Shown here in pieces: positions 2,030-18,292 of a stretch of DNA of 64,000 nucleotides (positions are counted from its first letter, which is position 1; the number at the start of each line of letters is the position of its first letter). The position numbers were made by a program, and so were the translations under genes. Under the pieces are notes generated by a model that worked only from the letters and a program-made list of their open reading frames with translations, was not told where the DNA came from and made no database searches. This DNA is from Siphonodentalium dalli (taxonomy: Eukaryota; Mollusca; Scaphopoda; Gadilida; Siphonodentaliidae). The stretch covers positions 85,165,980 to 85,229,979 of the forward strand of contig CP136063.1 of the NCBI GenBank assembly GCA_032622095.1, given 5' to 3'.

Positions 2030-2236
2030 TGGACAGCGGACAGTCAGTCAGTAAGTCGGGACCACTCGTCCTCCTATGGCTGCGAACCCATCCAGTGAAA
2101 GTCCCTTCAGGTGGGGAAAACCACCATCGGGGACGTATTACACCACATGGGCTCGACCAAAGCATAGCGACCCTGTTCACCGCCAGCGGGGAACAGATAC
2201 TACACTTTGATCTTAGCCAAAAGGCCGAGAAGCGAT
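2030..2236 (-). ncRNA. U2 snRNA-headed sequence, copy 1 (possible U2 variant, pseudogene or U2-derived retroposon)
   Basis: On the minus strand from 2236, the first ~47 nt match the conserved 5' end of U2 snRNA: ATCGCTTCTCGG, then GGCCTTTTGGCTAAGATC, then the branch-point pairing region GTGTAGTATCTGTTC. The spacing AAAGTGTAGTA is the form I associate with insect-type U2. After that the sequence leaves U2. It forms a GC-rich hairpin (CTGTTC...GAACAG around a CCGC/GCGG stem), and lower down GTCCC pairs with GGGAC around a GGTGG/CCACC stem. I see no Sm site (RATTTTTGR type) and no normal U2 3' half, so a working spliceosomal U2 is unlikely. GGTTCGCAGCC at 2088-2078 is close to a Pol III B box, and TGGCTAAGATC in the head is A-box-like. 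A U2-headed SINE, or a U2 gene broken by an insertion, are the alternatives. Confidence 0.75.
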
Positions 2237-2240
2237 TATT

Positions 2241-2443
2241 GCTGTATATGCCTAATTTTAAATCGCACATTTCATGGTAAGATTAATTCCGACATTTAAT
2301 AAATTATATAATCACGAAACGCTCTTTAACTTCGGAAAAAAAAACCTAAAAGAGGGGTTAAAGTGAAATTTCAGCGTGGCTCCATATCTAATATCAATTG
2401 GTATGTCAATATGTACATATGCTTTAGTGACGAAGTGAACAAT
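2241..2443. repeat. Inverted-repeat arm beside the U2-headed sequence (left arm)
   Basis: This stretch is the approximate reverse complement (about 80% by eye) of 3406-3608 in the same unit. Shared landmarks include TTTCATGGTAAGATTA, AAACGCTCTTTAA and GCGTGGCTCCATATCTAATA. It starts immediately upstream of the U2-type 5' end, so on the minus strand it occupies the place of a U2 promoter. Its twin, without U2, argues that it belongs to an inverted-repeat element instead. The same pair occurs in units 2-4. Confidence 0.85.
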
Positions 2444-3405
2444 TCTATTACTAATCTACTCCACTATATTGGTTATCGCTAACCAGCTAGATTAACGTCT
2501 TAATTCATTTAATCGTTTTATTAAAATTCAAGCCCCACAAACAAATTGAATTTTTATAAATATAATTATATTCCATTTTATTAATAGTACCCCGGTTAAG
2601 GGGAGAGAAAAATAGCCATAAGGCTCATTGTAGTGTTCCTCCGCACGGAAATCTTTAGTAAAAGGCGAAAGATTTATTCGTGTTTGAGGAGAAACCAGAG
2701 CTAAAAGATATAAAATTCAGAAACAGCCCAACCTAGCAGGCTGCTCCACCAAAGAAGGTGTGATATGAAACAAAGAGAAATTACAACAAAGACAAATTAC
2801 AACAGCGCGACACCTATTTTCAGCGATAAAGGAATCATCCGCACAAGACATTGCCTGACAATCGAAACAATATCCAATTATAACACTTCTGACATTAAAA
2901 TTTCGGTATTTATTTTGACCCTCGTATATTCTGGAAATTAGAATAGAGTTATACTTCGTTTGGTGACGAATAAGCGAGATCAAGGAAACAGGGAGCTAAA
3001 TGTGTTCTAGAGTCCGGGAGCGAGTACACCGTGGAATGCTAAAGGTGAAGGTAACTGAAGAATGACCTTCACCTGATACATGCGACACGTTATTAAAGGA
3101 TGGCATTTCGCTTATTTGATTTGTACATCATATCTAAATCATTTAAACTGGTGAATGAATGGGGGAATGGCCGGATTTGTGTGAGCCGGAAATTTATTTA
3201 ACTAGCTGCTGTAGTTCTGGGTTTTTCCAGATCAAATTTGGCTGTGGGATAGCCCTGTCGTACACTTTGGGGATTTATTTTAAAACGTAAACACATGACC
3301 TATGATTTTTCTTGCATTTTCGTGATCAACTGGTGTCAATCTAACTGGGTAAACATCACTGGTATAGCGGATTAAGGCAAATTTTCAAGACAATTGTTCA
3401 AATTG

Positions 3406-3608
3406 TGACTAAAGCATGAAACTTTGCACATATGTAGATATACATATACTTATTGGTATTAGATATGGAGCCACGCTGAAATTTCAATTTACCCCTCTTT
3501 TAAGGGGTTTTCAGAATTTAAAGAGCGTTTCATGATTATATAACTTGTTAAACGTCGCAAATAATCTTACCATGAAATATGCTATTTAAAATTAGGTATA
3601 TACAATAA
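3406..3608. repeat. Inverted-repeat arm (right arm)
   Basis: Partner of the arm at 2241-2443, separated from it by ~960 bp. Beyond 3608 it continues with a stretch around GGAGCTCCCCGTCC that the left arm lacks, because the left arm runs into the U2-headed sequence there. Copies lie near 7300-7502, 11187-11389 and 15570-15772; unit 5 lost this arm through the LINE insertion. Confidence 0.85.
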
Positions 3609-14758: not shown

Positions 14759-16916
14759 TTAAGGGGAGAGAAAAATAGCCATAAGGCTCATTGCAGTGTT
14801 CCTCCGCACGGAAATCTTTAGTAAAAGGCGAAAGATTTATTCGTGTTTGAGGAGAAACCAGAGCTAAAAGATATAAAATTCAGAAACAGCCCAACCTAGC
14901 AGGCTGCTCCACCAAAGAAGGTGTGATATGAAACAAAGAGAAATTACAACAAAGACAAATTACAACAGCGCGACACCTATTTTCAGCGATAAAGGAATCA
15001 TCCGCACAAGACATTGCCTGACAATCGAAACAATATCCAATTATAACACTTCTGACATTAAAATTTCGGTATTTATTTTGACCCTCGTATATTCTGGAAA
15101 TTAGAATAGAGTTATACTTCGTTTGGTGACGAATAAGCGAGATCAAGGAAACAGGGAGCTAAATGTGTTCTAGAGTCCGGGAGCGAGTACACCGTGGAAT
15201 GCTAAAGGTGAAGGTAACTGAAGAATGACCTTCACCTGATACATGCGACACGTTATTAAAGGATGGCATTTCGCTTATTTGATTTGTACATCATATCTAA
15301 ATCATTTAAACTGGTGAATGAATGGGGGAATGGCCGGATTTGTGTGAGCCGGAAATTTATTTAACTAGCTGCTGTAGTTCTGGGTTTTTCCAGATCAAAT
15401 TTGGCTGTGGGATAGCCCTGTCGTACACTTTGGGGATTTATTTTAAAACGTAAACACATGACCTATGATTTTTCTTGCATTTTCGTGATCAACTGGTGTC
15501 AATCTAACTGGGTAAACATCACTGGTATAGCGGATTAAGGCAAATTTTCAAGACAATTGTTCAAATTGTGACTAAAGCATGAAACTTTGCACATATGTAG
15601 ATATACATATACTTATTGGTATTAGATATGGAGCCACGCTGAAATTTCAATTTACCCCTCTTTTAAGGGGTTTTCAGAATTTAAAGAGCGCTTCATGATT
15701 ATATAACTTGTTAAACGTCGCAAATAATCTTACCATGAAATATGCTATTTAAAATTAGGTATATACAATAAGCATGACTCTGAGAGATATAATGCCACAT
15801 TTTTATGGTAAAATTGGAGCTCCCCGTCCAAGATGGCCATCGAAATGGCAACTGAAAGAGGACATTTTACGTTTTTTACCAATATCTTCTAGATCAGGTT
15901 CTGCTGTATGGAACTGGTTCGGAAATGTGACTTTATTTTGAATTTTTCGTGTTAGTGACCATTGGAGCAATGAAATATGCCATTTGAATTATCCCAGTCC
16001 CTTCTGATCACTCAATAATTAGATTATACACAACTCCGTATGAAATTTCACCAAAAATCAACGTTAGAATTCTAGTCAATTTTTAACAAGAAATTGAGAG
16101 AACTGTGCAAATTAAGTGAGGCATACAAATACTTATGAATATTTGAACTCAATGGAACAAAAATTGTCACTTTGTCTGAAAACTGATGGCTGTCAAAATG
16201 GCGGCCAAAACCTGAAAATTTGTAAATATTGCCCCATCATGCCATGTAATCGCTTATAAGTTGTGATTGACAAATGCAATTGGCTATGCTGTCTTATATA
16301 CATTGAATATTCTCACATCTATGATGCACATTGGTTAGTTTAGTTATATAAATGTAACCATTGACATTACCAGAATTATTGGACTTTTATATCACAACTT
16401 GACATAAAAATCGGCCAAATTTATTTACTTTTCAGGTTTGGACCAATTATTCAAGTATATGGAACTATCTTTGGCATCAATGATGTTTTTGATCTGTCTT
16501 AAATTCGTCACACTAATGTGTTTTTAGACAACATTACTCAAGACGGCTTCCAAAATGGCAACCACATTTGGTAAAAAAAATTCACGTATTCCGAGCAGTA
16601 TTCTCGGTTCCCAAGAGTTAGCCAATTGTAACTCACTTGGTTGTAAACCATGTTGCTTACTCCACTGACGACTACATGTTTCATTCTCGTTGTTTGTGTA
16701 CCTTCTGAGGCGGCATTCATTTTAAATGATGTACTGCAGTATGGAGTTTACCAAAAATGTCTTTTGGGACTCTATCTATATTTTTGATCAGAAATGGGCA
16801 GAACGTCTAAACGGAACTGAGTGAAACCATATTATGTGGCTACTCTCGACCATTAGCATAAAATCAATTTAATATATGGTGTATATCAAAATGGCAGCCA
16901 GTGAGTGAATGTGTGG

Positions 16917-17741
16917 TCATAGATGAGGTGAATAGTTCAATGGAGTTATTGTATGGTCATTATTGGTGCGAAGCAGTAGCCTATAAGCATGGTGTGTGTG
17001 TGGGGGTATATTAGCTGTATGTTCACCTGTGTGTTGTTTATGTATATATAGAGTGACTGTATGGTTATGCGTGGGATATGCATGCGTACCTTGGATGACT
17101 ATTGTCATGGATGGGTGTATATGTATACATATGTTGACTGCATGATCATGTGTGGGACTGTGGGTGTATGAATAAATATCGAGTTGTTGTATGCTTATTA
17201 TGTGCAACGAATGTAGGTGTACATGGAACGACTGTACGGTCATGATTGTTGAAGTGTATATTAATACCTGGATCATAGATGGATGGTCATTGACGGCGTG
17301 TGGGTATATATGAAGTGCCCTTGTTGTCATGGTCGTATATGTGATGTATATGCAACTCTCCCGTGGCTGTATTATCATTGGTGGAAGTATACATAGACGT
17401 ATGATCATGGATGGTGAGTATAGATGGTGAGTGATCATGGTGCGTATAGATGGTGAGTGATCATGGATGGTGAGTATAGATCGAATGGCTGAATTGTCAT
17501 GGGCGAGGTGTATATATGCAAATATGGAGTGTACGAATGGTCGTGCGGTGTATTGGTATATCCATTGGTTAGGTGTATATGTATACCCGGATTGACTATG
17601 GTCATGAGTGGGGTTTATGTGTATACCTTGAGTGGGTATATGGTCATGTATGTGAAGAAAAGGTATACAGGGCGTGGTTCTGATTACCACTTCACAATCA
17701 TATGAAACCCGCGTATCATGTAGAAGGGTGGGGGCTGACAC
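16917..17741 (-). repeat. His-rich minisatellite frame, unit 5
   Basis: Copy of the minisatellite in unit 5. The frame is open and shares the L to R change near residue 100 with unit 4, but not the two D to N changes. Confidence 0.7.
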
Positions 17742-18085
17742 ACTCTTTACTTTTTATCACAAACTGGCCGCGGGGATGGAAAATATGGCTATTTTTTTTA
17801 TACCACACTATAGATTGAAAATCCTTTTTTTTTAAATGTTTCTCGTATGTTTTTTTTTCAAAGTTGCAATTAAAACGTGTCTTCGAATCAAAATGCTTTT
17901 CATAGAAATGTTTGTTGCTGGAAGTGTCGGAAAGAGATACAGATCATCTAGTTTTGACCAAAGTTATAACAACCCTACTCCCTGTCATCACGTCACTGTG
18001 TATAATTAGCACCTGCTGGCACCTTGCAAGCAGTCACAGACGAGTTGCAGGCACCTGTCGGGAACGCCGCGCACCTTGCAGACAG

Positions 18086-18292
18086 TGGACAGCGGACAGT
18101 CAGTCAGTAAGTCGGGACCACTCGTCCTCCTATGGCTGCGAACCCATCCAGTGAAAGTCCCTTCAGGTGGGGAAAACCACCATCGGGGACGTATTACACC
18201 ACATGGGCTCGACCAAAGCATAGCGACCCTGTTCACCGCCAGCGGGGAACAGATACTACACTTTGATCTTAGCCAAAAGGCCGAGAAGCGAT
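18086..18292 (-). ncRNA. U2 snRNA-headed sequence, copy 5
   Basis: Fifth and last copy in the window, with the U2-type 5' end at 18292. The Tx1-type LINE is inserted about 430 bp upstream of it (minus-strand sense), so any distal promoter elements there would be displaced. Confidence 0.75.

What the first reader, a model, noticed from the sequence alone, without database searches (positions are those of the whole stretch)
2030..18292. Tandemly amplified U2-headed sequence lacking the Sm site
Seen: five near-identical minus-strand copies in which ~47 nt of perfectly kept U2 5' sequence, including the GTAGTA branch-point pairing element, is fused to a GC-rich body with strong hairpins and no Sm-type site or U2 3' half. 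Known: real U2 genes can be tandem; U2-headed SINEs and U2-targeted LINEs (Keno, Utopia) have been described in animals. Inference: this is a U2-derived structured RNA family, a U2-headed retroposon caught in an array, or a U2 array broken by a targeted insertion. The kept head next to a replaced body is unusual.
Basis: partly seen in the sequence, partly recalled or inferred. Interest (0 to 1): 0.75.

Follow-up and report, generated by a model that had tools for sequence, protein, structure and literature searches.

The report
U2-headed insert in U5 gene array
A short DNA piece that begins with the first quarter of the splicing RNA U2 sits once in every repeat of a U5 splicing-RNA gene array; it is most likely an old RNA-copied insertion carried along by the array, not a working U2 gene.

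Summary
Five minus-strand copies (starts 2236, 6129, 10016, 13901, 18292) carry U2 nt 1-45, with one extra A, fused to a GC-rich, strongly folding body without Sm site or U2 3' half. Two related U5-spacer sequences (B 3392-3731 +; A 24645-24312 -) share the 200 bp upstream of the head, then continue together into non-U2 sequence where the array copies have U2. The U2-headed piece is thus most simply a derived insertion beginning at U2 nucleotide 1. This argues against a broken U2 array; nothing in front resembles the U5 upstream region. New detail: U2 nt 25-45 pairs with the adjacent body over 21 bp. Best reading: an RNA-templated chimeric retroposon, multiplied passively with U5 units. A U2-headed SINE or an expressed RNA is not excluded: the genome search did not complete (21 tries), so dispersed copies and real U2 genes are untested. 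In passing: an L1-group LINE lies inside a U5 gene.

The parts
2030..2236 (-). U2-headed sequence, copy 1 (head 2236-2191, body 2190-2030)
   Evidence: Rfam U2 52.8 bits on head; fold z -4.2
5923..6129 (-). U2-headed sequence, copy 2
9810..10016 (-). U2-headed sequence, copy 3
13695..13901 (-). U2-headed sequence, copy 4
18086..18292 (-). U2-headed sequence, copy 5
2155..2212 (-). hairpin P2: U2 nt 25-45 plus extra A (2212-2191) paired with antisense arm 2178-2155
   Evidence: duplex -25.9 kcal/mol, 0 of 5000 body shuffles; pairs listed
2084..2154 (-). hairpin P3 of the body
   Evidence: -34.6 kcal/mol, shuffles mean -21.0, 0 of 1000
2239..2440 (-). upstream flank C of the head, shared with A and B; not similar to the U5 upstream region
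   Evidence: A-C 188/200, B-C 168/199; promoter comparison
3392..3731 (+). B: inverted related site without U2
   Evidence: 83% over 343 columns with A, through the junction point
24312..24645 (-). A: related site without U2 in a diverged U5 unit
1629..2029 (-). R: sequence downstream of the insert, with a relative outside the array
   Evidence: 79% over 458 columns to 28308-27862
27862..28308 (-). R relative without the U2-headed piece beside it
2588..2703 (-). U5 snRNA gene, unit 1
   Evidence: Rfam U5 84.7 bits
6482..6597 (-). U5 snRNA gene, unit 2
   Evidence: 81.7 bits
10368..10483 (-). U5 snRNA gene, unit 3
   Evidence: 83.1 bits
14748..14866 (-). U5 gene of unit 4, 3' hairpin interrupted by a TTAA-flanked element (14261-14762)
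   Evidence: 79.3 bits
18644..18718 (-). U5 nt 42-116 of unit 5, joined to the 3' tail of a LINE
24790..24905 (-). U5 gene of the diverged unit
   Evidence: 83.1 bits

Best explanation
The U2-headed sequence is a chimeric retroposed insert. A reverse transcriptase copied another RNA, or an RNA ligated to U2, ran onto a U2 5' fragment (nt 1-45: 5' stem-loop plus branch-site-interacting segment) and stopped at the true U2 5' end, so the genomic copy starts at U2 nucleotide 1. It landed once in the spacer 3' of a U5 gene. Unequal exchange in the U5 array then multiplied and homogenised it with the 3.9-kb unit. It is not a U2 gene and probably has no snRNA promoter. Shown: content of the array, exact head, related sites without U2, no convincing U2 3' half, no Sm-like site in the 207 nt, hairpin predicted between head and body. 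Inferred: that the U2 state is the derived one (by parsimony), the RNA intermediate, template switching or ligation, passive amplification.
For: Head begins at model position 1 of U2. Related sites A and B share the upstream 200 bp with the array copy C (A-C 94.0%, A-B 88.5%, B-C 84.4%). Past the junction A and B stay alike (95 of 123; local score 69, 0 of 1000 shuffles), while C is no closer to them than shuffles (453 and 454 of 1000). A is closer to C than B is, so the state shared by A and B is most simply the older one. No resemblance between the regions upstream of the U2 head and of U5 (score 10, 2000 of 2000 shuffles at least as good). No other U2-like head in the window. L1 chimeras with U1-U6 snRNAs at the 5' end are documented in mammals (PMC13174262, passages), and an L1-group LINE with open ORFs lies in this locus.
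Against: No convincing target-site duplication: the best candidate is 11 of 12 nt in a minisatellite stretch. No poly-A lies at the presumed 3' end; A-rich runs occur inside R, near 1800 and 1775. The 3' boundary (2030/2029) rests only on where similarity of R to 28308 stops, and the GC-rich stretch runs on into R to about 1930. The old sequence downstream of the site was not found again after the insert in the same orientation. In L1 chimeras the U6 part is full-length, whereas here U2 is cut at nt 45 (U3 parts are truncated there). The body is not recognised as any known RNA. The antisense arm next to the head is not predicted by simple template switching. A string like the vertebrate promoter element PSE (TTACCATGA, recalled consensus) lies 44 nt before the head, but also in A and B. 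Gene conversion between A and B could mimic the derived state.
Confidence: 0.45

Rival explanations
1. A U2-headed SINE family (SINEU-like) of which one copy was caught in a U5 unit and amplified with it.
For: Head, structured body and an ACTG-rich stretch near the 3' end (about 2056-2030) resemble head-body-tail architecture; insert-like boundaries on both sides.
Against: No copy outside the array in 64 kb. No strict Pol III B box (pattern GWTCRANNC), and TTTT runs at nt 15 and 117. No convincing target-site duplication. No similarity of the body to the LINE in the window. Exact searches of viral contigs for head and body found nothing, which says little about an animal genome.
Confidence: 0.2
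2. DNA-level rearrangement: replication template switching or ectopic exchange joined the 5' end of a U2 gene to a U5 spacer.
For: The locus is full of inverted and shuffled U5-unit pieces, and the head-body palindrome is a typical product of fold-back replication (general knowledge).
Against: A break exactly at U2 nucleotide 1 is unlikely by chance, and no U2 promoter came along as far as can be judged.
Confidence: 0.17
3. An expressed structured RNA whose U2 branch-site-binding segment is held in a hairpin (decoy or regulator).
For: U2 nt 25-45 pairs over 21 bp with the body. Measured against a perfect antisense copy of the head, all 5 substitutions in the arm keep pairing (A to G four times, C to U once; the arm also has two inserted bases), while the 46-nt head has no substitution. 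P3 folds better than 1000 of 1000 shuffles.
Against: Nothing upstream resembles the U5 upstream region. The substitution argument assumes that the arm arose as a copy of the head. Pairings as strong occur at 29 of 6390 sampled plus-strand positions of the window (9 of 2549). After correction for GC the 207 nt rank 17 of 1064 windows in folding energy. The outer helix P1 is not significant (266 of 3000 shuffles).
Confidence: 0.1
4. A U2 gene cut at nt 45 by a U2-targeted retrotransposon (Keno/Utopia type), later decayed.
For: Utopia and Keno are followed by U2 from nt 39 (PMC4640811, section 6); a short duplication of nt 39-45 would leave a head of 45 nt.
Against: No convincing U2 3' half (best: 18 nt, AT-rich, E 0.03), no reading frame that looks like a reverse transcriptase in the unit (list, by eye), and the upstream flank precedes non-U2 sequence in A and B.
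Confidence: 0.05

Closest known systems
snRNA/LINE chimeric retroposons (U6/L1, U1-U5/L1 in mammals; PMC13174262, passages read)
   Same: snRNA with its true 5' end at the 5' end of a composite insert
   Different: U2 part is only nt 1-45; no LINE-derived 3' part, poly-A or convincing target-site duplication found; lies in a tandem snRNA array
SINEU, SINEs with snRNA-derived heads (Kojima 2015; not held, known from citations and recall)
   Same: snRNA 5' head followed by an unrelated body
   Different: no dispersed copies seen in the window; not testable genome-wide here
U2 snRNA gene (RF00004)
   Same: nt 1-45
   Different: extra A, no Sm-like site in the 207 nt, no convincing 3' half, no recognised promoter
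U2 genes carrying Utopia or Keno (PMC4640811)
   Same: U2 5' fragment next to foreign sequence
   Different: no convincing U2 from nt 39 after it, no reverse transcriptase seen between, U5 array rather than U2 array

Membership tests
U2 snRNA gene | 5' stem-loop and branch-site-interacting segment | tested here: met
   nt 1-45 present, one inserted A
U2 snRNA gene | Sm site | tested here: not met
   no strict site in 737 nt; no loose site in the 207 nt (loose ones at nt 399, 471, 509)
U2 snRNA gene | 3' half (stems III, IV) | tested here: not met
   model positions skipped; best 18-nt match E 0.03
U2 snRNA gene | snRNA promoter at the right distance | tested here: inconclusive
   no similarity to the U5 upstream region of the same array; a PSE-like string at -44 also stands in A and B; no real U2 gene of this genome at hand
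SINE with snRNA head (SINEU) | snRNA-derived 5' head | tested here: met
SINE with snRNA head (SINEU) | dispersed copies at independent sites | not testable with these tools
   The genome search did not complete (21 tries); none in 64 kb outside the array
SINE with snRNA head (SINEU) | target-site duplication | tested here: not met
   best 11 of 12 nt in a minisatellite stretch, taken as chance
SINE with snRNA head (SINEU) | 3' tail shared with a partner LINE | tested here: inconclusive
   none shared with the LINE in the window; other LINEs untested
snRNA chimeric retroposon | snRNA with exact 5' end at the 5' end of the insert | tested here: met
snRNA chimeric retroposon | site empty in a relative | tested here: inconclusive
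   A and B lack U2, but they are paralogous sites, not the same locus in a relative
snRNA chimeric retroposon | poly-A or LINE-type 3' end and target-site duplication | tested here: not met
   duplication search; sequence read
Utopia/Keno-interrupted U2 gene | U2 from nt 39 onward after the insert | tested here: not met
   definition

The most novel reading that the evidence does not exclude
The array co-amplifies a functional U5 gene with a U2-derived RNA that keeps U2's 5' stem-loop and folds its branch-site-binding segment into a 21-bp hairpin with its own body, under selection for that pairing: a natural, Sm-free U2 mimic made next to U5.
Probability: 0.08. Interest if true: 0.85.

Novelty: new variant of a known kind. 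Interest (0 to 1): 0.45.

Why it matters
The snRNA-headed insertions in the papers I saw are mostly from vertebrates. This one is in a U5 array, its junction at U2 nucleotide 1 is shown against two related sites without U2, and the retained U2 part ends with the branch-site-interacting segment (nt 25-45, named from recall). If transcribed it would be a ready-made test of whether a U2 5' fragment outside an Sm particle can act on splicing. The same locus also holds a candidate U5-targeting LINE; the 2015 Utopia paper names only U1, U2 and U6 as snRNA targets of mobile elements reported until then.

Tried and rejected
U2 3' half elsewhere in the unit: only an 18-nt AT-rich match at 821-804 (E 0.03, in 5 of 5 units), taken as chance. 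Target-site duplication: 11 of 12 nt at 5190 in a minisatellite stretch, taken as chance. Outer helix P1 between U2 nt 4-22 and body: not significant, 266 of 3000 shuffles. The shuffle control was unsuitable, I think because the aligner left few columns (shuffled maximum 0.794 against 0.772 observed for A-B); I replaced it by local alignment scores. The variable-site list beyond unit-1 coordinate 2660 is an artefact of unit 5 ending in a LINE; I counted only gap-free columns in 1-2660. A 45-codon plus-strand reading frame through the body (2077-2211) has no Pfam match and is taken as chance. R plus body as one 5'-truncated retroelement: possible, but R lies among U5-unit fragments in both places, so it may simply be old spacer. 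Pol III transcription: A-box-like pattern at nt 78 and 92, no B box by strict pattern, TTTT inside. Viral-contig scans gave 0 matches. Folding energy of 207-nt minus-strand windows: the element ranks 5 of 1064 raw and 17 of 1064 after correction for GC, z -2.4, so strong folding alone is not exceptional here. The 608-nt stretch including R folds only at z -1.5 (1 of 20 shuffles as good).
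Full report
What is there. The first 18.7 kb of the window is the end of a tandem array with a 3.9-kb unit (copies spaced 3893, 3887, 3885 and 4391), 99.3-99.9% alike in long alignments. On the minus strand each unit carries a U5 snRNA gene and, about 350 nt 3' of it, the U2-headed sequence (in unit 4 the gap is longer by the inserted element). Of the U5 genes of the five units, three are complete (84.7, 81.7 and 83.1 bits), one has its 3' hairpin interrupted by a small TTAA-flanked element (79.3 bits) and one is cut at nt 42; a sixth, complete U5 (83.1 bits) lies in a diverged unit at 24905-24790. 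U5 is a conserved part: in 25-base steps it differs by 0 to 1 base between the diverged unit and unit 1 (0 against unit 3), while other parts of the 768 columns differ by up to 11; some spacer steps are as conserved as U5, among them the last 100 bp before the U2 head.

The head. Rfam U2 matches 5 of 5 copies at 52.8 bits with model position 1 at the first base and nothing recognisable after about position 46 (same hits with permissive filters at E up to 1 over 1-32000). The head is U2 nt 1-45 plus one A. No other head-like sequence occurs in the window. There is no Sm-like site, strict or loose, in the 207 nt, three loose ones further downstream (nt 399, 471, 509), and no convincing U2 3' half.

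Derived state. The 200 bp before the head occur twice more: as an inverted copy B (3392-3608, +) in the same unit and as A (24645-24437, -) in the diverged unit. A-C is 188 of 200, A-B 184 of 208, B-C 168 of 199. At the place where C starts U2, A and B go on together (95 of 123; local score 69 against a maximum of 15 in 1000 shuffles), while C is at chance level to both. Because A is closer to C than B is, the common state of A and B is most simply the older one and the U2-headed piece came in later, beginning at U2 nucleotide 1 (two bases, TA, lie between the shared flank and U2). On the other side similarity of the downstream sequence R to 28308-27862 begins at 2029, so the insert is plausibly 2238-2030; this second boundary is weaker, since the GC-rich stretch runs on to about 1930. 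That the shared 200 bp stand before non-U2 sequence in A and B tells against a U2 promoter, as does the lack of similarity to the U5 upstream region; a PSE-like string at -44 (recalled consensus) is present in A, B and C alike.

Structure. The 207 nt fold at -89.1 kcal/mol (z -4.2, 0 of 200 shuffles). The striking part is P2: U2 nt 25-45 with the extra A pairs with the body over 21 bp (-25.9 kcal/mol against a shuffle mean of -11.8, sd 2.1, 0 of 5000); without the extra A the duplex is weaker (-21.2). Measured against a perfect antisense of the head, the arm has five substitutions, all keeping a pair, and two inserted bases. If the arm arose as a copy of the head, the chance that none of five changes falls in the 46-nt head is 0.0035 under equal rates, or 0.03 for the 22 homologous positions alone. 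That is suggestive of constraint, but rests on that assumption, and pairings of such strength occur at 29 of 6390 sampled plus-strand places in the window. P3 is significant on its own (0 of 1000 shuffles), P1 is not (266 of 3000). The five copies are identical here (no variable gap-free column in 2030-2238), so there is no covariation evidence.

Mechanism. The best fit is an RNA-templated chimera: the exact snRNA 5' end is what reverse-transcriptase template switching or RNA ligation gives, as reported for U1-U6 with L1 in mammals (PMC13174262, passages). Later amplification with the U5 unit needs no function. Missing for a full case are a target-site duplication, a LINE-type 3' end and dispersed or orthologous comparison. 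A SINEU-type family, a DNA-level rearrangement and an expressed RNA remain possible in that order; a Utopia/Keno-cut U2 gene is unlikely.

Limits. The window's genome could not be searched: the tool did not answer any of 21 identical requests. The organism is not known to me; its being an animal is inferred from the snRNA genes, the LINE and general sequence character.

Literature. Seen: PMC4640811 (abstract, section 6 whole, passages), PMC13174262 (passages), PMC8869645, PMC5753468, PMC8010984 and PMC7245038 (passages). In the listings (20 of 118 papers shown), 16, 36, 37, 45, 51 and 74 no title or abstract start describes a U2-headed element in a U5 array. For U5-targeted retrotransposons, no title or abstract start (20 of 32 shown; 1 paper, not read) describes one. 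These searches cover open-licence papers only.

Noticed in passing
18719-24251 (-): An L1-group LINE with open ORF1 (22985-24250 as listed, ATG at 24145) and ORF2 (22510-19058: Pfam endonuclease and reverse transcriptase, zf-RVT just below its cut-off; best solved relative LINE-1 ORF2 protein, E 6e-73). Its A-rich 3' tail joins U5 nt 42, in the conserved loop 1 (recalled), of array unit 5; on its 5' side stands a diverged U5 nt 9-56 (24299-24252, 88%). Candidate U5-targeting retrotransposon, one insertion only, and its two U5 flanks are not identical.
   Followed up: partly
14261-14762: A TTAA-flanked element of about 500 bp with 20-nt terminal inverted repeats (80% complementary; piggyBac-like MITE, class named from recall) sits in the 3' hairpin of the unit-4 U5 gene; a second TTAA-flanked copy is at 52511-53016.
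   Followed up: partly
24252-28308: A cluster of broken U5-unit pieces in shuffled order beside the array: parts of the U5 3' flank four times, R twice.
   Followed up: partly
58095-61026: A tandem array with units of about 122 and 500 bp.
   Followed up: no
32304-34088 (+): Frames that read like a Penelope-type reverse transcriptase by eye; no Pfam match at E 0.001.
   Followed up: no
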